NCBI GenBank assembly: GCA_007693395.1 | Contig: REDS01000093.1 | Span: 1 to 33,529, forward strand | Length of the DNA: 33,529 nucleotides | DNA from: Balneolaceae bacterium | GTDB lineage: Bacteria > Bacteroidota > Rhodothermia > Balneolales > Balneolaceae | Direction of reading: 5' to 3' | Part shown: piece by piece, positions 1,706 through 33,529 of the stretch | Layout: each line of letters begins with the position of its first letter | How positions within the stretch are numbered: position 1 is the first letter of the stretch | Program-made: the position numbers and the translations under genes | The notes under the pieces: generated by a model | Seen by the model: only the letters and a program-made list of their open reading frames with translations | Database searches by the model: none | Told to the model about the DNA's origin: nothing

Positions 1706-3220
1706 TCAAACTCCATCCCCTGAATTGCCGCCTGCCCTGTTGGAAAGATGAACAAGATGCCTGATTTTATCCCGGTTTACAAGGTTCAGCATATCGGGGG
1801 TATATCGCCAAAGCCAGTTATCCTTTACTGTGCCGGGTATATTCATACGATGAGTTGCATCAAGGTTCATAAAATCCTGCAGGGGGAATATGGCTTGATC
1901 AGCAACTGATAGCATCCCAAGCCGAATTAGCTCCCAATTGATTTCGCGTCCGTCACTGCGCGAATATTCTCTTGCCCGGTGCTGCTCGGCCCCCGGTGCT
2001 GTACGGTACCAGCCGATTGTGGTGTCATTGTCATGCGTGCCGGTGTACACAACACAATTCTGCGGATAGTTATGAGGTAAAAAGCTGTTTGTTGAATCAG
2101 AATCGAAGGCGAACTGCAGAATTTTCATGCCGGGAAAATTGAATGAATCTCGCAGATCTTCAACCGTTGGAGTCATCACGCCAAGATCTTCAGCTATGAT
2201 GGGGAGCTCTCCAAGCTCTTTTTTGATGGTTTTGAACAGTTTTTTACCGGGTGCATTTACCCATTTACCAACTTCGGCTGTTTTTGCTTTGGCAGATACT
2301 TCCCAGTAGGCATCAAATCCGCGGAAATGATCTACACGTATGGCATCGTAAAGCTCAAACATCTGCCGGAATCGTTCTACCCACCAGCTGAAATTATCAG
2401 CTTCAAGCTCTTTCCAGTTATATAGCGGGTTTCCCCAAAGCTGACCTGTTGCACTGAAGTAATCCGGTGGTACACCCGCCACAAGTACGCGATTTCCTTG
2501 TTGATCTACCTCAAAATATTTGGGATTTCCCCACACATCAGCACTGTTGTGATCTACAAAAATGGGGATGTCACCTACAACCCGGATGCCTTTTGCATTG
2601 GCGTAGCCTTTCAAGGCGTGCCATTGGTTAAAAAATTCGAACTGTACCCAGGTTTGGTATGCGATTTCTTCTTGATACTCTTTCCTCAGTTTTTTTATGG
2701 CAGCAGGTTTTCGCTGCGCTATTTCCGGTGCCCACTGGTTCCATGGTATTCGGTTGTTGGCTTTTGAACAGGCTATGAACAAGCAGTAATCTTCCAGCCA
2801 AAATTTGTTCGACTTTTTAAATGCCTGCAATTGTTTCTCATCGCCTTTGCTCAAAGAAGCATAAAAACTTTCAGAGGCTTTTTTGTAAAGATTATTTTTG
2901 AGGCTGTACGACTTTTCGTAATCACTTCGTGTGGTTGAAGGCAGTTCGGCAGTTTTTGCTTCTTCTGCTGTTAAAAGCCCCTTTTCTACAAGAATATCAA
3001 GGCTAATAAGGTAGTGGTTGCCAGCAAAAGCTGAGTAACTGGCATATGGTGAATTGCCATAACCGGTAGGGGTGAGGGGCAGAACCTGCCAAATAGTTTG
3101 GTTGGTTTCTGTTAAAAAATCGATGAATGTTTTGGCTTCATAGCCAAAATCTCCCATCCCATATTTTGATGGGAAGGAGGTCGGGTGCACGAGTGTGCCG
3201 CACGATCTTGGGAATCTCAT
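1706..3220 (-). CDS. malQ: 4-alpha-glucanotransferase (amylomaltase)
   Basis: The 504-residue product is a GH77 amylomaltase that transfers alpha-1,4-glucan segments between maltooligosaccharides in the cytoplasm. It starts MRFPRSCGTLVHPTSFPSKYG and has PLTPTGYGNSPY near residue 50. The catalytic set is visible: nucleophile Asp297 in AIRVDHFRGF, acid/base Glu344 in IIAEDLG, and Asp397 in TGTHDNDTT. Length fits the bacterial short type (about 500). ATG start. It follows glgB by 18 bp on the same strand, so the two are almost certainly one transcript, combining branching with chain remodelling of storage glucan. Confidence 0.95.
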   Translation of the reverse strand: MRFPRSCGTLVHPTSFPSKYGMGDFGYEAKTFIDFLTETNQTIWQVLPLTPTGYGNSPYASYSAFAGNHYLISLDILVEKGLLTAEEAKTAELPSTTRSDYEKSYSLKNNLYKKASESFYASLSKGDEKQLQAFKKSNKFWLEDYCLFIACSKANNRIPWNQWAPEIAQRKPAAIKKLRKEYQEEIAYQTWVQFEFFNQWHALKGYANAKGIRVVGDIPIFVDHNSADVWGNPKYFEVDQQGNRVLVAGVPPDYFSATGQLWGNPLYNWKELEADNFSWWVERFRQMFELYDAIRVDHFRGFDAYWEVSAKAKTAEVGKWVNAPGKKLFKTIKKELGELPIIAEDLGVMTPTVEDLRDSFNFPGMKILQFAFDSDSTNSFLPHNYPQNCVVYTGTHDNDTTIGWYRTAPGAEQHRAREYSRSDGREINWELIRLGMLSVADQAIFPLQDFMNLDATHRMNIPGTVKDNWLWRYTPDMLNLVNRDKIRHLVHLSNRAGGNSGDGV

Positions 3221-3238
3221 ATGTATTTCTGTTGATTC

Positions 3239-5434
3239 TTATTTCTTAGGTTTTAGCACAACCCCGGCAAGAGGGGGAACCGGAATTATGATGTGGGAGG
3301 TTTTATTATGCCAGTGGCCTTTTTCACCTTTCACAATTACCGGCCCTGCATTGCTGCCGCCGTAGTGTGATGAATCACTGTTTAAGACCACTTCATACTC
3401 GCAATCATCAGGTACGCCGAATTTGTAGTGTTCGTGAAATGTTGGCGTGAAGTTGAGAATGAATACAAGGTAATCATCCGGGTCTTTTCCTTTTCTGATG
3501 AATGAGAGAAGACTATTGTCTGCATCACTAATATCAATCCATTCAAAACCTTCCCATTTGGCATCTACTTCGTGCATCGCTTTTTCACTCTTATAGAGAT
3601 TGTTCAGGTCTTTTACAAGGTTTTGTACGCCCTGGTGGGTTTCCCACTGCAGCAGGTGCCAGTCTATGGATTGGGATTCAGTCCACTCATTCCATTGCGC
3701 AAATTCACCGCCCATAAAAAGCAATTTTTTACCGGGATGGCCATACATATAGGTATAGAGTAGGCGAAGATTGGCAAATTTTTGCCAGTCATCCCCCGGC
3801 ATTTTGGAGAGAAGCGATTTCTTCATATGAACCACCTCATCATGTGAGAGCGGCAGGATAAACTGCTCAGAAAAAGCGTAAATCATGGAAAAGGAGAGCT
3901 GATCCTGATGATACTTTCTGTAAAGCGGATCTTTCTCCATGTAGGCAAGCGTATCGTTCATCCAGCCCATGTTCCATTTAAAATCGAAACCGAGACCGCC
4001 AGATGACGTTGGCTGAGATACCCCGCCCCAAGATGTTGATTCTTCGGCAAAGGTTAGCACACCCGGGAAGTATTGATGGGTAACCTCGTTGAACCGGCGC
4101 AGAAAATAGATCGCTTCGATATTTTCGCGGCCGCCATACTGATTGGGCACCCATTCACCCTCCTCGCGTGAATAGTCGAGGTAGAGAATGGATGCAACTG
4201 CATCAACCCGCAGGCCATCTATGTGAAATTCTTCGAGCCAGTAGATAGCATTGGATAGCAGGAAGTTTTGCACTTCTGAGCGGCCAAAATTAAAAATCAA
4301 TGTGCCCCAGTCTTTATGTTCGCCCTGTCGCGGATCTTCATGCTCGTAGAGTGCGGTGCCGTCAAACCGGCGCAGACCATGTTCATCTTTTGTGAAGTGA
4401 GCGGGTACCCAGTCAACAATTACTCCAATCCCGGCTTGGTGGCACCGGTCAACAAAATAGCGCAAATCATCCGGGTTGCCGAAACGGCTGGTTGGTGCAA
4501 AATAACCTGTAATCTGATATCCCCAGGATGGATCATACGGATGCTCTGCAATTGGCATCAGTTCCACATGGGTAAAGCCCATCTCTTTCATATAGGGTAC
4601 AAGTTCATCGGCAAGTTCGCGGTAATTCAGAAAGCCGGGATCTTCTCCTATTTTACGCTTCCATGAGCCGGGATGAATCTCATAAACGGAAACTGGTTGT
4701 TCATGGTGAGCCTTTTGCGAGCGCTCTTCCATCCACTTTTCATCATTCCATTGGTATGATGTGTTCCATATCTTAGATGCTGTTCCCGGCCGCATTTCAG
4801 AAAACCGTGCATAGGGATCTGCTTTCTTGAACGGAGCGCTTTGAGCAAAACTTTTTACTTCGAACTTGTAAAGGTCGCCTTCAGTAACATGCGGAATAAA
4901 AATTTCCCAAAGTCCTTGGTCAACATATTTTCGCATTCCGTGAACGCGGCCATCCCAGTTATTGAATGAGCCGATTACACTAACCCTGCTTGCTGAAGGA
5001 GCTGTTACCACAAAATGTGTGCCGTCAACACCATCTACAGTTTTGGTGTGTGCACCCATAAAACGGTAGGAATGATGATGATTTCCCTCGCCCCAAAGCT
5101 GCATATCAAAATCAGTTAGCAGTGTACCGAACCGGTAGGGATCATCAACGGTGTATGTATCCCCAACATACGGGTGCACTTTTATTTTGTAGGAAAACCG
5201 GTTCTTTTTGCGCGGAAAAACATATTCAAAAAGCCCCTCGTCGGATTTACGCTCTAACTGAACGGGTTTCCCGTTTTCAGGCAGAATAAAAATTTGTTTT
5301 GCATCCGGGCGGAAAGCACGGGCTACAAGTTTCTCTTTATTATCAATTGTTACTGTATGCAATCCCAGTACGGAAAATAGATCCCCATGTTCTCCGTTGG
5401 ATATTGCCTTAATTTCTTCGATTTTTAAAGTCAC
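3239..5434 (-). CDS. glgB: 1,4-alpha-glucan branching enzyme
   Basis: GH13 branching enzyme that creates alpha-1,6 branches in glycogen. The product has an N-terminal glucan-binding module, a CBM48-like domain (VIGSFNNWDG), then the (beta/alpha)8 core with SVYEIHPGSW, DWVPAHF, nucleophile Asp in DGLRVDAVASILYLDYSR, acid/base Glu in LTFAEESTSW and the third acid in LSHDEVVH. The spacing nucleophile to acid/base (53 residues) equals that of E. coli GlgB. Start choice: the open frame can be extended to a TTG at 5473, but that codon has no Shine-Dalgarno. A GTG at 5434 has GGTGAG six bases upstream and gives 731 residues, close to E. coli GlgB (728), so I prefer it. First gene of the minus-strand glycogen cluster and divergent from the permease at 5543. 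Confidence 0.95.
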   Translation of the reverse strand: MTLKIEEIKAISNGEHGDLFSVLGLHTVTIDNKEKLVARAFRPDAKQIFILPENGKPVQLERKSDEGLFEYVFPRKKNRFSYKIKVHPYVGDTYTVDDPYRFGTLLTDFDMQLWGEGNHHHSYRFMGAHTKTVDGVDGTHFVVTAPSASRVSVIGSFNNWDGRVHGMRKYVDQGLWEIFIPHVTEGDLYKFEVKSFAQSAPFKKADPYARFSEMRPGTASKIWNTSYQWNDEKWMEERSQKAHHEQPVSVYEIHPGSWKRKIGEDPGFLNYRELADELVPYMKEMGFTHVELMPIAEHPYDPSWGYQITGYFAPTSRFGNPDDLRYFVDRCHQAGIGVIVDWVPAHFTKDEHGLRRFDGTALYEHEDPRQGEHKDWGTLIFNFGRSEVQNFLLSNAIYWLEEFHIDGLRVDAVASILYLDYSREEGEWVPNQYGGRENIEAIYFLRRFNEVTHQYFPGVLTFAEESTSWGGVSQPTSSGGLGFDFKWNMGWMNDTLAYMEKDPLYRKYHQDQLSFSMIYAFSEQFILPLSHDEVVHMKKSLLSKMPGDDWQKFANLRLLYTYMYGHPGKKLLFMGGEFAQWNEWTESQSIDWHLLQWETHQGVQNLVKDLNNLYKSEKAMHEVDAKWEGFEWIDISDADNSLLSFIRKGKDPDDYLVFILNFTPTFHEHYKFGVPDDCEYEVVLNSDSSHYGGSNAGPVIVKGEKGHWHNKTSHIIIPVPPLAGVVLKPKK

Positions 5435-12199: not shown

Positions 12200-13018
12200 A
12201 TGAAAAGCTTGTATCACACTCTGCATTTAACTCTTTTTTTAATTGTTATATCTGCACTCTTTCTTGTGTCCTGCAATAACAACCCCGGTGATCCGCTTCA
12301 GGGTGTTGTTGCCAATACCTGTAACAATATCAGCGGGGTAGAAGGGCTCTATTGGGATCTTTCCAACGGCTTTCCAAGAGGAGATATACCCGGTGGTTTA
12401 CCAACCATCCGTATTGTGGGCGGCAGTTTTGTGCATCCCGCTTTTCCGCTGCTGGGGTTTATTTACCCGGTTGGTTACCAGGCATTCGCGGATAACATAC
12501 AGGGTGCAATTGGGGTTAATGTAATTCGGGATGATAATCGGTCGGTCTGGCGGATGACCCAGATGAACTTTCCCGGCCAGTTTGTCCGTTCCGGCCCCAT
12601 GATGGATATTGAGCTGAACCGGTTGATGAGTTTCCTGGGTACAGACATCAATAATATTCAGGTGGTGTGCGTAGCCCAGTTTGTGGGCCCTGCGGGTGAG
12701 CTGGCACCAGGGCTTGTAAGGGATGCAACTAATCTGATGATCAGGGTGGGCGAGTTTACTGCGGTTGTGGTTGTGAATGTAACAAGGCTTGAGGGTTTTG
12801 ATGTCACTTTTTCCTCGCTCTCCATTGCAGTTTCGGCGGCACCGACTGTTGAGTTTGAGAATGAAATTATGAGAACTTATTTGCCCATCTCCTGGCAGAT
12901 GATGTTTAACGACAAAGGCGAACTCGACTCAGACGGCGACGGTGTTCCGGATAGCCGCGACCTCTGCCCCGGTACCCCGCCCGGAACCCGTGTTGATGCA
13001 AACGGCTGCCCGATTTAA
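12200..13018 (+). CDS. Lipoprotein with C-terminal thrombospondin type 3-like motif
   Basis: I prefer the ATG at 12200 over an in-frame ATG at 12146, because it places a lipoprotein signal at the N-terminus, with LVSC and Cys25 as the lipidated residue; this gives 272 residues. The body has no domain I recognise: a beta-rich segment with GLYWDLSNGFPRGDIPGG and repeated hydrophobic strands. The last 30 residues, DSDGDGVPDSRDLCPGTPPG and then a DANGCP ending, form one thrombospondin type 3/calcium-binding unit, the type that normally links a beta-barrel to an OmpA peptidoglycan-binding domain. Here the protein stops right after it. It may be a small surface lipoprotein or a truncated relative of an OmpA-like protein; the repeat copy immediately downstream makes loss of a C-terminal domain conceivable. 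Confidence 0.7.
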   Translation: MKSLYHTLHLTLFLIVISALFLVSCNNNPGDPLQGVVANTCNNISGVEGLYWDLSNGFPRGDIPGGLPTIRIVGGSFVHPAFPLLGFIYPVGYQAFADNIQGAIGVNVIRDDNRSVWRMTQMNFPGQFVRSGPMMDIELNRLMSFLGTDINNIQVVCVAQFVGPAGELAPGLVRDATNLMIRVGEFTAVVVVNVTRLEGFDVTFSSLSIAVSAAPTVEFENEIMRTYLPISWQMMFNDKGELDSDGDGVPDSRDLCPGTPPGTRVDANGCPI

Positions 13019-13459
13019 AACAATTTTAGCCTCATTGAAGCGTCCGAAGGTCCTTCAATCGTGGCGGGTTGACGGGGATGAGTTCAGAGTTGTCACGAGC
13101 GGGCGCTCGCGCCAGTTGTGTGCTCACGCCGGTTGTGTTAATGATGAATGGAGAGATCCTTTAGTCCACAACGCTTCGAGGAGCAAGCACGCTCGAAGGT
13201 TCTGTTCATATAAGGGGGTTCAGAAAGAAAGGAATGCAGCTTCTTTACTGAGTGCGTCGATTAATTTTAGCCTCATTGAAGCGTCCGAAGGTCCTTCAAT
13301 CGTGGCGGATGGCGGTGGTGATTTCAGAGTTTTCACGAGCGGACGCTCGCGCCAGTTGTATGCTCACGCCGGTTGTGTTAATGATGAATGGAGAGATCCT
13401 TTAGTCCATAACGCTTTGAGGAGCAAGCACGCTCGAAGGTTCTGTTTATATAAGGTGGT
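13019..13459. repeat. Tandem repeat pair (copies B and C) between lipoprotein gene and aat
   Basis: Two near-identical direct repeats, about 13023-13261 and 13264-13500, lie head to tail with a period of 240-241 bases and roughly 16 differences by eye, including one single-base indel. Both begin ATTTTAGCCTCATTGAAGCG and contain the hairpin ATTGAAG/CTTCAAT, GAGC(g)GGCGCTC-type dyads and AAGCACGCTCGAAGGTTCTG. Copy C runs into the last 13 or so codons of aat (13460-13500), and copy B ends with a duplicate of that aat tail at about 13221-13260. The core is also present as copy A at 11896-12030. An open plus-strand frame through both copies is repeat-driven, not a credible gene. Confidence 0.85.
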
Positions 13460-14068
13460 TCAGAAAGAAAGGAATGCAGCATCTTTACTAAGTGCGTCGG
13501 TTAGACGTTGTACATACTCTTCACGGCTGATTTCAATGCAACCAAACCGCCCCAAATGTTCGGTATAAAACTGCGTATCCCATAGTGTAAAATCGTTTGC
13601 CTGGAGAATGTCGTGGCAATGCCAAAGGGCAACTTTATCCGCCTCGGTTGCAGTTTTAAACATCGATTCACCAAAAAAAGCTGCCCCAACAGTAACACCA
13701 TAGAGGCCGCCAACGAGATTCAGGTCATCGTCATACGTTTCTACAGAGTGGGCATAGCCTGCAAGGTGAAGTACTTCAAAGGAATCGATAATCAGATCTG
13801 AAATCCAGGTTGATTCTCTGTCAGCGCATGATTCAACCACACTGCGGAAATTGCGGTTTACCATCAGATGATATTTTTGATTCCGGATCAGGCGCTTCAC
13901 ATTCGATGAAACTCTGAATTTATCCAACGGAATGATTCCCCGCTTTTTTGCAGAGTACCAGCTCACTCCGCTATCATCCCGCGATTCACTCATCGGGAAA
14001 ATTCCCTGGCGATACCCGTTCAGCAGAACTTCAGGCGGAATTATTTTTTTTCCGGCGTTTGATTTCAT
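13460..14068 (-). CDS. aat: Leucyl/phenylalanyl-tRNA--protein transferase
   Basis: The 202-residue product is Aat, which adds Leu or Phe from aminoacyl-tRNA to N-terminal Arg or Lys of proteins, marking them for ClpS/ClpAP turnover (N-degron pathway). Family blocks in order: LLNGYRQGIFPMSE (18-31), WYSAKKRGIIPLD (36-48), WISDLIIDSF, AHSVETYDDDLNLVGGLYGV with the VGGLYGV core, FFGESMFKTATEADKVAL and LWDTQFYTEHLGRFGCIEI. Slightly short but normal for Bacteroidota. ATG start. The last codons, about LTDALSKDAAFLSF, lie inside repeat copy C, so the C-terminal tail has been shaped by that repeat or has been copied with it. First on the minus-strand side after a 167-bp gap from the methyltransferase gene stop. 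Confidence 0.95.
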   Translation of the reverse strand: MKSNAGKKIIPPEVLLNGYRQGIFPMSESRDDSGVSWYSAKKRGIIPLDKFRVSSNVKRLIRNQKYHLMVNRNFRSVVESCADRESTWISDLIIDSFEVLHLAGYAHSVETYDDDLNLVGGLYGVTVGAAFFGESMFKTATEADKVALWHCHDILQANDFTLWDTQFYTEHLGRFGCIEISREEYVQRLTDALSKDAAFLSF

Positions 14069-19419: not shown

Positions 19420-19968
19420 ATGAGACCGAGGAAAACAAGAAAACAGAAAGAGCTTATTTATGCAGAGCTGCGCGTAGCAGGTGATGTATGCCTGTTCCTG
19501 AAGCCTCAGATAATGGCGAAAATTATCAGCGGGCTACAGTGGTGCTGCGATAAACGCGGGCTGCGTATTTACGAATACTGCATTTTGCCCGACAGAGTTC
19601 TGCTGCTCGCCAACACGGCGTGGGGCAGTGTGGCTGAGGTGATTGAAGCGTACAAAGATTTCAGCTCGAAAGCGGTGATGTTGATTTTGCGGCGTGGTAG
19701 TTCAAATGGAAAACAATCGTGGATCTTCTCCGTGTTTCAGGAGCACGGGCCAACAGGCAAGGCAGAGGGAATACACATTTGGGAAGAGGAGACACTGATG
19801 CAGTCTCTCTTTAAGCAGGATGATATTGATCAGCTATCCACAAGTATGAAAAACAGGCCGGTAAAACTTGGGCTGGTTAAAAAGGCGGAGCACTATCTTA
19901 ACAGCAGTGCCCATCCTGCAAATCCACTTGGAGGGTGGATAGTTGAAGCTACCGATCCGTGGAGTTGA
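19420..19968 (+). CDS. RAYT/IS200-like Y1 transposase homologue lacking HUH histidines
   Basis: The 182-residue protein aligns by eye along its whole length with REP-associated tyrosine transposases (Y1_Tnp, IS200-like) of Bacteroidota: GLQWCCDKRGLRIYEYCILP (38-57), then EVIEAYKDFSSKAVM (about 74-88), a variable segment with IHIWEEE, and RPVKLGLVKKAEHYLNSSAH near the end, matching the usual NPVxAGLVxxPEDYxYSSA. In active members the segment PDHVHLL holds the metal-binding HxH. Here it reads PDRVLLL, with Arg59 and Leu61, so both histidines are gone. The reading frame is intact, with a good GGAG 6 bases before the ATG, so I infer a domesticated, non-catalytic DNA-binding descendant. Divergent from sucC. 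Not part of an IS: no terminal repeats seen. Confidence 0.75.
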   Translation: MRPRKTRKQKELIYAELRVAGDVCLFLKPQIMAKIISGLQWCCDKRGLRIYEYCILPDRVLLLANTAWGSVAEVIEAYKDFSSKAVMLILRRGSSNGKQSWIFSVFQEHGPTGKAEGIHIWEEETLMQSLFKQDDIDQLSTSMKNRPVKLGLVKKAEHYLNSSAHPANPLGGWIVEATDPWS

Positions 19969-28256: not shown

Positions 28257-30056
28257 ATGAATAACATCCGCAATTTTTGCATCATTGCCCATATCGATCA
28301 CGGGAAATCTACGCTGGCTGATAGATTGCTCGAACGCACCGGGGCCATCAGCGAGAGGGAGATGCAGGCGCAGATTCTTGACAGCATGGATCTTGAGAGG
28401 GAACGTGGTATCACCATCAAAAGCCATGCTATTCGGATGGAATACATCAGGCCAAACAAAGAGAAGTATATTTACAATCTGATCGATACACCCGGCCATG
28501 TTGATTTTGCCTACGAAGTGTCCCGGGCACTAAAAGCGTGCGAAGGTGCACTGCTGATTGTGGATGCTGCCCAGGGTATTGAAGCGCAAACCATTTCCAA
28601 CCTCTATCAGGCTATCGAACAGAATCTTGAGATTATTCCGGTTCTCAACAAAATAGACCTTCCCGGAGCTGATCCTGAGGGTGTTGGCCAGCAAATAGTT
28701 GATCTGATTGGCTGCGATCCCGATGAAATACTACATGTATCCGGCAAAACGGGCGAAGGCGTAAATGAACTTCTTGAAGCTATTGTAGATCGGGTACCCG
28801 GACCTGAGCAGAATATTGAAAAACCACTGAAAGCTCTCATTTTCGACTCTATTTTTAACACATACAGAGGCTCTATCGCGTATGTTCGTGTAGTTGAAGG
28901 TGTGCTGAAAAAGGGGGATGATATTCTCTTCATGGCCACAAAGAAAGAGTATTCGGCTGAAGAGATTGGCTACCTTCAGATGAAAATGCACCCCACACAA
29001 GAGCTGAAGGCCGGAGAAGTTGGCTATGTTATCGGGAGTGTAAAATCCCTGCAGGATGCGAAGGTTGGCGATACAATTACCCACGCCAAAAAGAAAGCAG
29101 ATAAAGCCATTGAGGGTTACAAAGATGTAAAACCAATGGTTTTCAGTGGAATTTTCCCAACGCAATCGGAAGATTTTGAAGACCTTCGCTCAGCACTGGA
29201 AAAGCTTCAGCTGAACGATGCTTCATTAACGTATCAGCCGGAAACCTCAAAGGCATTAGGATTTGGATTCAGGGCCGGTTTTCTTGGGTTGCTCCATATG
29301 GAAATTATCCAGGAACGGTTAGACAGGGAATTTAACATCGATATTATCACAACCGTACCCAACGTGCGGTATGAGATTGATACTACCGATAAAAAACGAA
29401 TTCGGGTGGATAACCCCAGCGAAATGCCCGATGCCGGAAATATTGAAGCTGTATGGGAGCCATTTATCAAAGCGAGTATCATCACTCCGGCCGATTATAT
29501 AGGGCCAATTATGTCTCTGTGCCAGGAGAGGCGGGGAGTTTATGTAAATCAGCACTTTATGCAAAATAATCGTGTTGAAATAACCTACGAGTTACCCATG
29601 GCAGAGGTGGTTTTCGACTTTTATGATAAGCTGAAAAGTGGTACACGTGGTTATGCTTCTCTCGATTATGAATTTATTGAAAACAGAAAAGGCCATTTGG
29701 TGCGTTTAGATATTCTGTTAAACGGAGAACCGGTTGATGCGCTCTCAAGCATCTCGCATCGTGATAAAGCGTACTATCAGGGGCGCAAGATTTGTGCCAA
29801 GCTGAAGGAACTTATTCCAAGGCAGCAGTTCGAAGTAGCAGTGCAGGCTGCAATCGGCAACCGGGTTATTGCCCGCGATACGATACGAGCTTTACGAAAA
29901 GATGTAACTGCAAAATGTTATGGCGGTGACATCACACGAAAACGTAAATTGATTGAGAAACAGAAAGAAGGTAAAAAGCGAATGAAGCAGGTTGGTACTG
30001 TAGAAATTCCGCAGGAAGCCTTTCTTGCTGTACTCTCAATGGACGATGAAGATTAG
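28257..30056 (+). CDS. lepA: Elongation factor 4 (LepA) GTPase
   Basis: The 599-residue product is the ribosomal GTPase LepA/EF4, thought to back-translocate or aid ribosome function under stress. G1 is AHIDHGKST (11-19), switch [18 protein letters not shown]4 [11 protein letters not shown], followed by domain II, EF-G-like domains III and V, and the LepA-specific C-terminal domain with [20 protein letters not shown] and [18 protein letters not shown]. Length is normal (about 600). ATG start, 150 bp from the divergent M14 gene. Followed closely by an exported protein gene and lepB, a frequent lepA-lepB order. Confidence 0.98.
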
Positions 30057-30664: not shown

Positions 30665-31753
30665 TTGAAAAAGGAAAAAGGCTCAAAAGAAAACGTATCG
30701 GGGAAACGCCGAACCGGCAAAAGTAAGAAAGAGGAAAATAGCGCAAAACACTGGGCACGTGAGTGGCTTGATGCTTTGGTTTGGGCCGCAATTGCTGCCA
30801 TAATTTTGCGGACATTTTTCTTTGGAGCCTACCGAATTCCAACACCAAGTATGGAAAAAACCCTGATGACGGGTGATTTTCTGATTGTTACCAAACTCGC
30901 TTACGGCCCGCGCACCCCAATGACACTGTCCGTACCGTTTACCGATATCTATATGCCGGGAGTAAATTTGCCGTGGTTTCGAATCCCCGGTTATTCTGAA
31001 ATTAAACGCGATGATATCGTTGTGTTCAACTATCCCATCGATGTGGCACCGGTTTCGGTTAAAACCAACTACATTAAACGCGCGGTGGGTATTCCCGGAG
31101 ACAGGCTGCGTATTGAAAATAAACGACTCTATGTAAATGGTGAAGAGTCAGAGCGATTTGAAACACTGATGTATAACTATCGGGTAAATGTGCGTGACCG
31201 CATTCGCCTGAGCCCCACAAAAGTGCGGGAGGCCGGTGGTTCTATCGTGCAGAGCGGAACCGGTTCACACATTATCAATATGACACCTGAAGTGGCAAAC
31301 GAAATAGCCGGCTGGGCTGAAATTGAAAGTGTTGGAAAATTTACACTGCCAGAAGATTATGATCTGTTCAGCCGCCGCGGGTTCAATTTTTCGCGCGGAT
31401 TTAACAATCACGACCATATGGATGAGTTTCAGGTACCCTACAGCGGCATGGAGATTGAGCTCACAGCCGATAACTGGCATCTCTACCAGGATATTTTAGA
31501 GCGCTATGAGCGTAGAAGTGTTCAGCGGAACGGTGATGTTTTTATGATAGACGGAGAAGAGACCAACCGCTATACCATTCAAAAAGACTACTACTTTATG
31601 ATGGGAGACAACCGGGATGACAGTGAGGACAGCCGCTTCTGGGGATTTGTGCCGGATGATCATGTAATCGGAAAAGCCGGAATTATCTATTTCTCATGGG
31701 ATGGCGAAAACTGGATGCCACGCTTCAACCGAATCCTGAATTTGATTCATTAG
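30665..31753 (+). CDS. lepB: Signal peptidase I
   Basis: The 362-residue product is a type I signal peptidase that removes Sec signal peptides in the inner membrane. A basic N-terminus precedes one membrane helix (about 35-54), then catalytic Ser62 in IPTPSMEKTL and catalytic Lys138 in YIKRAVGIPGD; MGDNRDDSEDSRFWGFV closes the active-site fold. Between about 160 and 285 there is a large insertion compared with E. coli LepB, as is usual in Bacteroidota. The start is a TTG at 30665 without obvious Shine-Dalgarno; no better start exists before the membrane helix. Last gene of the lepA transcript. Confidence 0.95.
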   Translation: MKKEKGSKENVSGKRRTGKSKKEENSAKHWAREWLDALVWAAIAAIILRTFFFGAYRIPTPSMEKTLMTGDFLIVTKLAYGPRTPMTLSVPFTDIYMPGVNLPWFRIPGYSEIKRDDIVVFNYPIDVAPVSVKTNYIKRAVGIPGDRLRIENKRLYVNGEESERFETLMYNYRVNVRDRIRLSPTKVREAGGSIVQSGTGSHIINMTPEVANEIAGWAEIESVGKFTLPEDYDLFSRRGFNFSRGFNNHDHMDEFQVPYSGMEIELTADNWHLYQDILERYERRSVQRNGDVFMIDGEETNRYTIQKDYYFMMGDNRDDSEDSRFWGFVPDDHVIGKAGIIYFSWDGENWMPRFNRILNLIH

Positions 31754-32073
31754 GTGTGATTGAGTATCAAGTATTGAGATTGAAATAGCGCAAGCAGCCT
31801 GTACTGAGCCTGTCGAAGCATCCCATTTGTTCTACAATAAAGTGAAATCTCACTACTTGCTACTCATTACTCACTACTCCTGATACTCCCCCTCATAAAC
31901 TCAATCCGGCCGGCGATCTCTTCGCATTTGTTCGGCAGATCGGCCAATTCATTTAAATTGTCCAGAGCCTCTGTGACCCCCAAAATAATAGGGGTGCAAA
32001 GTTATTTGGTTTTTAATATTGTACAAGAAGCCAAGCCGCTAAAAACTCTCAAATAAACCAAAAGGTGTAAACA
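31754..32073. repeat. Intergenic palindromic element with 18-bp word shared with window end
   Basis: GAGTATCAAGTATTGAGATT (31762-31781) and AATCTCACTACTTGCTACTC (31846-31865) form a 20-bp inverted pair with two mismatches around a 64-base centre. GAAATAGCGCAAGCAGCC sits just inside the left arm (31782-31799) and recurs exactly at 33512-33529, at the window edge. The centre also holds ACTGAGCCTGTCGAAGC, a word widespread in bacterial intergenic repeats. The rest up to 32073 has a short minus-strand frame described in the findings, an ACCCC/GGGGT hairpin at 31976-31995 and AAGGTG at 32062-32067, a ribosome site for the next gene. Confidence 0.7.
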
Positions 32074-32286
32074 ATGAATGATTTATTAAAAGCAGGCCAA
32101 GTTTTAGGCCGAGAGGAAATGAAAAATATAATGGCGGGTTCTGGAAATGCGTGCCAGGTGTGTACAGATATAGCTGCGGCGTGCTATCAATATGTTGTTG
32201 ATACAATAGACCAAGCTGACGATGAGTATTCCCAAACCGTAGAGATATGTAAAAATCAAGCAGATGCTTGTTTATCTATGTGTTAG
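32074..32286 (+). CDS. Cys-rich peptide with double-glycine-like leader (candidate RiPP/bacteriocin precursor)
   Basis: A 70-residue protein with ATG start and AGGTG six bases upstream. The first 22-24 residues, MNDLLKAGQVLGREEMKNIM then AGSG, look like the leader of double-glycine peptides (EEMKNIM followed by a small-residue cleavage site, here AG instead of GG). The remaining 46-48 residues carry six cysteines at 27, 30, 37, 59, 66 and 70, spaced x2, x6, x21, x6 and x3, in an acidic, helix-prone sequence that could form a disulfide-stapled helical hairpin. The last residue is Cys. No peptidase-transporter or modifying enzyme is visible in this window. It is 44 bp ahead of a beta-propeller lipoprotein gene. 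A bacteriocin, signalling peptide or small secreted factor are all possible. Confidence 0.75.
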   Translation: MNDLLKAGQVLGREEMKNIMAGSGNACQVCTDIAAACYQYVVDTIDQADDEYSQTVEICKNQADACLSMC

Positions 32287-32330
32287 TGTTGGTGGTTTAA
32301 ATTGATCAAAAAAAGTTAAAAATGGGTTAA

Positions 32331-33467
32331 ATGAACTTTTTAAAAACGATCTTTGCTCTATCCAAACTGTTCTTCATCTTTTATTTTCTGCTATCCTGTA
32401 AAGGTGGAGGGGACATCTCAGTTATTTCAGAAGATCCGTTTATTCGGGAAATCAAGGATAGTACATCAGAATTGAATGTTGAATTAGGAGTTTTTAAGAA
32501 TATATCCCCCGAGTTGGTACCGATACGGATAATGCCTATTCCGGATAGCGATTTTTTGGTTGTTCTTGATTATGTAACTAAGTCTGTTGTGCTTGTTGAT
32601 AAAACAGGTATGGAATATTCAAAGGTTGGAGGCCCCGGCCGGGGCCCTGGAGAGTTCAAAGGGATGGGTAGAATCCATATTGGAGCTGACGGACTTTTGT
32701 ATGTTATGGATTCGTATTTTAGGCGCTATAATATCTTTGAAATTGATGTAGAAAATACGGAGTTACGTTATCACACAACTATAGTGCCGAAGCCCGATTT
32801 AAATTTTCGTTTGCAAGAAGCCTATGTAACAGAAAGTGGGCGTTTTGGAGTATTTAACCAAATAACAGATTATCAAACAGGAGAAAATAGTTACTATCTT
32901 TACACAATAGATGAAACGTTCAGCCCGATTGAGCGCCTTTTGGAAATGCCCGGAAATGATAAACTAAAGCTGTCGCAAGTTTTTTTTATTAATAATTCGG
33001 TTGGCCAATCCACCTATTGGGATCTGGATGGAGAATGGTTTTATTATATTAACTCTCATAGTTCTGTTATCAAAAAATATCATCTCAAAACAGGTAAATT
33101 TAAGACCATACAATATTTCGAATTTGGAGATCGAAAAAATAGTTCTTACAACATTACCTCATTAAATGAAATACTGGAACGTTTAATTGAGACAAATCCG
33201 CCCGTAGGAGAAGCAATCGAAAACAGCAAAACTCTTCCGCTTTTTGGAGGCTTTATAGTTCAGGATAACCGAATATTGTTTGAAATGTATTATGCCGGTG
33301 GTGAAAACAACATTTTTTTGCTTATTGACCAATCATCAGAGAAAGTGTCATTTATGGAAGTACCACCTTTTTTTCGTCGATATGCTATGCAGGGTCATGT
33401 TATTTATGGATTAGGTAATACAGGGCTTCATGACAGACAAATAAAATTTTTGAACATATACCAGTAA
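32331..33467 (+). CDS. 6-bladed beta-propeller lipoprotein
   Basis: The 378-residue protein has a long hydrophobic leader ending at FLLSC with Cys23 followed by KGGGD, a clear lipoprotein signal. The body matches 6-bladed beta-propeller (BF3164-like/NHL-related) lipoproteins of Bacteroidota: SDFLVVLDYVTKSVVLVDKT, then the family signature GGPGRGPGEF (about 100-109), then HIGADGLLYVMDSYFRRYNIF. These proteins are common, of unknown function, and typically outer-surface or periplasmic. As I recall, in Bacteroidota they often sit beside small peptides with NVEALS- or GG-type leaders, which fits the gene just upstream. The region is visibly AT-richer than the neighbouring lepA-lepB stretch. Confidence 0.85.
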   Translation: MNFLKTIFALSKLFFIFYFLLSCKGGGDISVISEDPFIREIKDSTSELNVELGVFKNISPELVPIRIMPIPDSDFLVVLDYVTKSVVLVDKTGMEYSKVGGPGRGPGEFKGMGRIHIGADGLLYVMDSYFRRYNIFEIDVENTELRYHTTIVPKPDLNFRLQEAYVTESGRFGVFNQITDYQTGENSYYLYTIDETFSPIERLLEMPGNDKLKLSQVFFINNSVGQSTYWDLDGEWFYYINSHSSVIKKYHLKTGKFKTIQYFEFGDRKNSSYNITSLNEILERLIETNPPVGEAIENSKTLPLFGGFIVQDNRILFEMYYAGGENNIFLLIDQSSEKVSFMEVPPFFRRYAMQGHVIYGLGNTGLHDRQIKFLNIYQ

Positions 33468-33511
33468 TGGAAAAGGTGCCGGACAAAGAGAAGATTTTTT
33501 TATTAAAAACC

Positions 33512-33529
33512 GAAATAGCGCAAGCAGCC
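33512..33529 (+). repeat. Direct repeat GAAATAGCGCAAGCAGCC at window end
   Basis: Exact 18-bp copy of the sequence at 31782-31799. The window ends inside it, so the true length of identity is unknown. Together the two copies bracket the peptide and propeller genes. Confidence 0.85.

What the first reader, a model, noticed from the sequence alone, without database searches (positions are those of the whole stretch)
31762..33529. Compact cassette: six-Cys double-glycine peptide plus propeller lipoprotein between direct repeats
A 70-residue peptide (cysteines at 27, 30, 37, 59, 66, 70 behind a leader ending EEMKNIMAGSG) is followed 44 bp later by a 6-bladed beta-propeller lipoprotein, and both are bracketed by an exact 18-bp repeat (31782-31799 and 33512-33529). 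The stretch is AT-richer than neighbours: by hand count 17 of 60 bases are G/C at 33121-33180, versus 26 of 60 at 28681-28740 in lepA. The layout suggests a mobile or recently acquired peptide-and-surface-protein module; I know of no described function for such a pair.
Basis: partly seen in the sequence, partly recalled or inferred. Interest (0 to 1): 0.75.

Follow-up and report, generated by a model that had tools for sequence, protein, structure and literature searches.

The report
Cysteine peptide and cognate propeller lipoprotein
A small, probably secreted, cysteine-rich peptide gene sits directly in front of a matching lipid-anchored propeller protein gene in a strain-variable insertion spot; across related salt-loving bacteria the same two-gene pair recurs dozens of times and the two partners vary together, as a peptide weapon (or signal) and its dedicated immunity (or receptor) protein would.

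Summary
In detail: 70-aa six-Cys peptide, 44-bp gap, lipoprotein propeller, exact 18-bp repeats, low GC. Two corrections. (1) 33529 is a contig end. The 18-bp word starts a ~150-225-bp repeat made of the lepB/ABC-F spacer plus a decayed copy of the ABC-F gene's 3' end. It has four copies, all at this locus, punctuating an array of propeller genes that continues on contig C128. The nearest relative has one propeller there; another is empty. (2) The pair is not isolated: of 36 double-glycine (GG) peptides found genus-wide by peptide profile, 35 are followed directly by a propeller lipoprotein. Relatives encode C39-peptidase ABC exporters, HlyD, VKOR-thioredoxin, LanC-like and glycosyltransferase genes beside them; no C39 peptidase was found in this genome. 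Propeller clade predicts the Cys framework of the peptide core (hairpin frameworks only in the window's clade, 11/11 after two frameshifted peptides were read in another frame), even where a Sec signal replaces the GG leader. Best reading: bacteriocin-like peptide plus cognate immunity lipoprotein; receptor or maturation partner remain open. No described match was found in the libraries and papers searched.

The parts
31782..31954 (.). Repeat copy R1: starts with the 18-bp word, then spacer, then a decayed copy (about 75-90 bp, reading on the minus strand) of the 3' end of the ABC-F ATPase gene
   Evidence: blastn 76.6% to C128:2836-3013; minus-strand reading NELADLPNKCEEIAGRIEF against ABC-F tail NELAELLNKWEEIAGRIEF
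31976..32019 (+). Upstream element CCAAAATAATAGGNGTGCA, exact only here and before the second hairpin-peptide/propeller pair of this genome (C49); the flanking pairs differ in a compensating way (ACCCC/GGGGT against ACACC/GGTGT), so possibly a hairpin
32074..32286 (+). Double-glycine leader peptide gene, 70 aa, core framework CX2CX6CX21CX6CX3C
32331..33467 (+). Six-bladed beta-propeller lipoprotein (PF17170), proposed cognate partner/immunity protein of the peptide
33512..33529 (.). First 18 bp of repeat copy R2, cut by the contig end; the array continues on contig C128 (L010) with a 5'-truncated propeller, a membrane ORF, repeat R3 (1255), a complete propeller (1536-2816), repeat R4 (2836) and the intact ABC-F gene (2938-4884)

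Best explanation
The cassette encodes a bacteriocin-like peptide and its cognate immunity lipoprotein. The peptide is made with a double-glycine leader that a C39-peptidase ABC exporter would cut after Ala-Gly; the 48-residue core folds into a disulfide-closed helical hairpin (CX6C...CX6C) and acts outside the cell. The lipid-anchored six-bladed propeller binds that core specifically and protects the producer by sequestering it, as lipoprotein immunity proteins of the NisI/SpaI kind do. Such modules accumulate at a lepB/ABC-F insertion spot by recombination through the ABC-F gene end, leaving a copy of that end beside each insert. Shown here: pairing, co-variation of core and propeller, leader exchange, the variable site. 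Inferred: secretion, binding, killing, protection, and the recombination route. In this genome, which lacks a detectable C39 exporter, the pair may now be mainly an immunity reserve.
For: 35 of 36 GG peptides found by peptide profile in the genus are followed directly by a propeller; peptides precede 33/207 (GG) and 18/207 (Sec) propellers against 0/477 and 3/477 other genes. Neighbouring C39-ABC, HlyD, VKOR-thioredoxin, LANC-like and glycosyltransferase genes in relatives. All nine hairpin-framework peptides belong to one starred propeller clade of 11 (support 98), and the two exceptions in that clade proved to be frameshifted hairpin peptides. Core similarity tracks propeller similarity (r 0.29, 0 of 2000 permutations as high) but leader similarity does not (r -0.04). 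Window core (GG) and C49 core (Sec) align at score 58 against 26 on average for Cys-fixed shuffles, 0/300 as high. Frameshifted peptide beside an intact propeller in L123 and L126. Locus: empty in G013, one propeller in G007 (lepB 97%); no propeller above 37% identity to the window's in 27 congeneric genomes.
Against: No activity data. A peptide and its receptor would co-vary in the same way. Immunity proteins of small peptides are usually much smaller. This genome and two congeners with GG peptides (G018, G008) show no C39 peptidase. The propeller family is broad and many peptide-less members are distant, so orphan counts are weak evidence. The fold of a peptide-propeller read-through fusion gave only a low-confidence hairpin for the peptide and no usable docking.
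Confidence: 0.5

Rival explanations
1. The peptide is a pheromone-like signal and the propeller lipoprotein its surface or periplasmic receptor.
For: Core-specific co-variation fits a ligand-receptor pair; structural neighbours include ligand-binding propellers (LRP6 with a disulfide-constrained peptide); a LuxR-type HTH gene precedes the pair on C49.
Against: No histidine kinase or other output gene was seen consistently next to the pairs; up to ten pairs in one genome (G021); modification genes (LANC-like, glycosyltransferase) beside some pairs suit antimicrobials better.
Confidence: 0.2
2. The propeller is a chaperone or surface anchor that helps mature, retain or display the peptide; the pair makes a structural or adhesive surface product.
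For: Strict adjacency and order, lipoprotein anchor, and use with both Sec and C39 export.
Against: Many peptide-less propellers, and propellers kept intact where the peptide is frameshifted.
Confidence: 0.15
3. The window pair is a decaying remnant with no present function: a GG peptide without an exporter.
For: No C39 peptidase in a 98%-complete genome; the neighbouring propeller on C128 is 5'-truncated.
Against: Both window genes are intact with conserved leader, framework and lipobox; the genome is a 227-contig draft with a gap inside the array.
Confidence: 0.12
4. The array is an integron-type or other site-specific cassette system acting on the 18-bp word.
For: A repeat copy after each gene unit; an integron integrase is present elsewhere in the genome (C188, 417 bits).
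Against: No RYYYAAC/GTTRRRY boxes in the repeat copies; copies carry ABC-F coding sequence of different lengths (about 40 and 75-90 bp), unlike a fixed att site; no integrase gene seen in or beside the array.
Confidence: 0.03

Closest known systems
Double-glycine leader peptides exported by C39-peptidase ABC transporters (class II bacteriocins, AMS/PCAT substrates; PMC6363468)
   Same: Leader type LxRxEMKxIMAG, short Cys-containing core, C39-ABC and HlyD genes beside the peptides in relatives
   Different: Core matches no described bacteriocin family; leaders match NCBIfam leader models only weakly (NF047798, TIGR04149, best E about 0.01); nearly every peptide is paired with a ~380-aa propeller lipoprotein; no C39 exporter found in this genome
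Pfam PF17170 (DUF5128) six-bladed propeller proteins; BF0058 of Bacteroides fragilis (PDB 4raa); DUF4221 (PDB 3s9j)
   Same: Fold and, for PF17170, sequence above the curated cut-off
   Different: Those entries have no assigned function, and no peptide partner is described in what was searched
Lipoprotein immunity proteins NisI/SpaI of lantibiotic producers (from memory, a lead)
   Same: Lipid-anchored protein that sequesters a secreted peptide
   Different: Different size and fold class; immunity not tested here
NVEALA peptides with BF3164/TolB-like propellers of Bacteroidales (from memory, a lead)
   Same: Short exported peptide near a six-bladed propeller lipoprotein
   Different: No peptide scanned here matched an NVEALA model, and the propellers score as PF17170 rather than TolB_like

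Membership tests
Double-glycine peptide exported by a C39-ABC transporter | Leader of the double-glycine type before a short core | tested here: met
   A2 alignment of 21 peptides: M16, G22 invariant; L11, R13, E15, K17, I19, A21 at least 90%; curated HMMs match only weakly
Double-glycine peptide exported by a C39-ABC transporter | C39-peptidase ABC exporter available in the genome | tested here: not met
   None in this genome; present beside the peptides in seven of the eleven congeneric genomes with GG peptides. Draft genome, so absence is not final; the window peptide is therefore not filed as a member, only as resembling one
Double-glycine bacteriocin | Antimicrobial activity | not testable with these tools
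   needs an assay
PF17170 six-bladed beta-propeller | Score above the curated cut-off and a propeller fold | tested here: met
   36.5 bits against 22.9; model Z 17.4 to 4raa over 287 residues, rmsd 4.1
Bacterial lipoprotein | Signal peptide ending in a lipobox with invariant Cys | tested here: met
   FLLSC, Cys23 invariant in A1 and A3; lipidation itself not tested
Integron cassette array | attC sites with RYYYAAC and GTTRRRY boxes | tested here: not met
   absent from R1, R3 and R4 on both strands
NVEALA peptide / BF3164 propeller pair | Peptide matches an NVEALA model | tested here: inconclusive
   no match for the window or C49 peptides in Pfam or NCBIfam; I did not confirm that such a model is in the library copies
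TIGR04149 radical-SAM-modified RiPP | Radical SAM enzyme beside the peptide | not tested
   three of 21 peptides hit TIGR04149 weakly (best E 0.014); clusters were not scanned for radical SAM domains

The most novel reading that the evidence does not exclude
A large, undescribed family of secreted disulfide-rich peptides in Balneolaceae in which each peptide core is recognised by its own six-bladed propeller lipoprotein (immunity protein or receptor), cores change export route by swapping Sec and double-glycine leaders while keeping the propeller partner, and modules are collected at chromosomal hot spots.
Probability: 0.5. Interest if true: 0.78.

Novelty: new variant of a known kind. Interest (0 to 1): 0.63.

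Why it matters
It would give a function to a large propeller lipoprotein family (PF17170) that has none, and would offer dozens of natural cognate peptide-protein pairs for testing recognition specificity. The leader exchange separates recognition from export. It also lets the Cys framework of an unseen peptide be predicted from its propeller, a prediction that held for two frameshifted genes.

Tried and rejected
Integron reading of the array: no attC boxes. Scattered-repeat reading: the 18-bp word and the adjoining GTACTGAGCCTGTCGAAGCAT stretch occur only at this locus. Rfam: nothing in the window. PADLOC: no match. Radical SAM or lanthipeptide family assignment: only weak leader matches. Literature: 'double-glycine' with '6-bladed beta-propeller' 0 papers; 'bacteriocin', 'immunity lipoprotein' and 'propeller' 0; 'NVEALA' 0; other searches listed nothing on such a pair by title; subscription papers and preprints are not held. 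A peptide-stop-propeller read-through fusion used as an in silico docking proxy (L121 pair, P0004) gave two helices for the peptide core at low confidence and no coordinates to inspect, so it neither supports nor refutes binding. The shared upstream element was exact only in C9 and C49 and was not pursued. The solved-structure sequence search gave NHL-type propellers and 4raa only.

Full report
What is there. The window is the whole of contig C9 of a 3.56-Mb, 227-contig draft genome. Related loci come from Rhodohalobacter, Fodinibius and other Balneolaceae. After lepA, a small exported protein and lepB (stop at 31753) come the 18-bp word, a spacer, the peptide gene 32074-32286, a 44-bp gap and the propeller gene 32331-33467; the 18-bp word returns as the last 18 bases of the contig. 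The cassette's 36.1% GC lies below every same-size window of the rest of the contig.

The repeat. The word has four copies in the genome, all in one orientation: two in C9 and two in C128. They are the left end of a longer repeat. C128 copies R3 and R4 are 93% identical over 151 bp; window copy R1 is 77% identical to R4 over about 180 bp. R4 runs straight into the 3' end of an intact ABC-F ATPase gene (C128:2938-4884, minus). R1 and R3 hold decayed pieces of that gene end: R1 reads NELADLPNKCEEIAGRIEF on the minus strand against NELAELLNKWEEIAGRIEF in the gene, and R3 keeps about the last dozen residues. C128 carries, from its left end, a propeller lacking its 5' part, a 146-aa membrane ORF, R3, a complete propeller lipoprotein, R4 and ABC-F.

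The site is a variable insertion spot. In congener G013 (lepB 92%) lepB is followed directly by ABC-F. In G007 (lepB 97%) exactly one propeller, 98.8% identical to the last one on C128, lies between them with a repeat copy on each side. G012 and G017 have the two genes adjacent; G003 has a GH5 cellulase there. This synteny also makes it very likely that C9 joins C128. Copies of the gene end of different length next to each insert fit integration by recombination through the ABC-F end (inference); fixed integron attC boxes are absent. The window's propeller has no relative above 37% identity in 27 other congeneric genomes.

The pair recurs. A peptide search of relatives found GG-leader, Cys-rich peptides whose leaders are alike (LxRxEMKxIMAG) and whose cores are not. 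A profile of them finds 36 in the genus at E below 0.01; 35 are followed directly by a propeller lipoprotein on the same strand. Independently, of 207 distinct propellers in 120 loci, 33 have a GG peptide and 18 a Sec-signal Cys peptide just upstream, against 0 and 3 of 477 other genes (Fisher 1e-18 and 1e-7). In relatives the pairs lie with C39-peptidase ABC exporters, HlyD-type proteins, VKOR-thioredoxin fusions, and in some clusters LANC-like proteins and glycosyltransferases: a peptide export and disulfide-forming setting. This genome itself has no C39 peptidase match, like two other congeners with such peptides.

Core and propeller vary together; the leader does not. In a tree of 53 paired propellers, the nine peptides with a hairpin framework (CX6C-X12..21-CX5-6C, or CX10C-X13..14-CX10C) all belong to one starred clade of eleven that includes the window's (4 label changes, shuffled mean 8.6, 0 of 200 as low). 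The two apparent exceptions, in Fodinibius salsisoli (L123) and a Balneolaceae MAG (L126), turn out to be frameshifted: another frame reads CQVCYDIAQAC...CDRQLECCVAQC and CNDISSAC...CWDHHDLC, both hairpin frameworks. That makes 11 of 11 inside and 0 of 42 outside. Within the clade three peptides (C49 of this genome, L126, L133) have Sec signals and eight have GG leaders. The window core and the C49 core are alignable beyond their cysteines (score 58, Cys-fixed shuffles 26 on average, 0 of 300 as high); L133's core shares the framework with the window's but not the sequence (same call). Across all GG pairs, core similarity follows propeller similarity (r 0.29; 0 of 2000 permutations as high), leader similarity does not (r -0.04). 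Recognition of the core by the propeller is the simplest reason (inference).

Structure. The propeller model is confident (pLDDT 91, pTM 0.85) and matches NHL-type propellers and the Bacteroides proteins BF0058 and DUF4221 at Z about 17. A read-through fusion of the L121 pair gave two helices for the peptide core but at low confidence.

How it probably works. A GG- or Sec-exported peptide with a disulfide-closed helical hairpin acts outside the cell, and the lipid-anchored propeller encoded next to it binds that core. Immunity is preferred because peptides are almost never without a propeller while propellers often lack peptides, because propellers stay intact where the peptide is frameshifted, and because the neighbouring genes are those of antimicrobial peptide clusters. 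A receptor or a maturation partner would give much the same sequence pattern and cannot be excluded. For the window pair the exporter is missing from the draft, so it may be an immunity reserve or a remnant.

Novelty. Each component belongs to a known kind; the pairing, the co-variation and the leader exchange were not found in the family libraries or in the open papers searched. Limits: the genus survey counts sequences, not independent events; the loci were chosen partly through the propeller (one search is free of that bias); the propeller family is broad; the hairpin frameworks were defined after looking at the window and C49 peptides, though the two frameshifted cases were a fair test; nothing was tested in the laboratory.

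Noticed in passing
L266 (G000:C188:42899-43837, minus): Full-length integron integrase (TIGR02249, 417 bits, cut-off 265) close to a contig end; a chromosomal integron in this lineage, cassettes not seen because the contig stops.
   Followed up: partly
L011:2855-3115 and 3191-4568 (C49): LuxR-type HTH gene whose stop codon lies in the CCCAAAATAATAGG element shared with the window, followed by a Sec-signal Cys peptide and a propeller.
   Followed up: partly
L010:798-1238; also L057:15007-15399, L060:11546-11917, L066:6953-7324: Small membrane protein family with no Pfam match, repeatedly next to propeller genes.
   Followed up: no
L104:1326-2441 (G003): A GH5 cellulase-like lipoprotein occupies the same lepB/ABC-F site in another congener: the site accepts unrelated genes.
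   Followed up: no
L121:3567-3623: Inverted repeat (GGCCTGTAC...GTACAGGCC) between peptide and propeller genes in Fodinibius halophilus, possibly an attenuator setting the peptide-to-propeller ratio.
   Followed up: no
window 12942-13568: Open frame holding two near-identical stretches (TSGRSRQL.AHAGCVNDEWRDPLVHNA); probably a non-coding direct repeat read as an ORF.
   Followed up: no
window 19420-19968: 182-aa protein that looks, by eye, like a REP-associated or IS200-type transposase.
   Followed up: no
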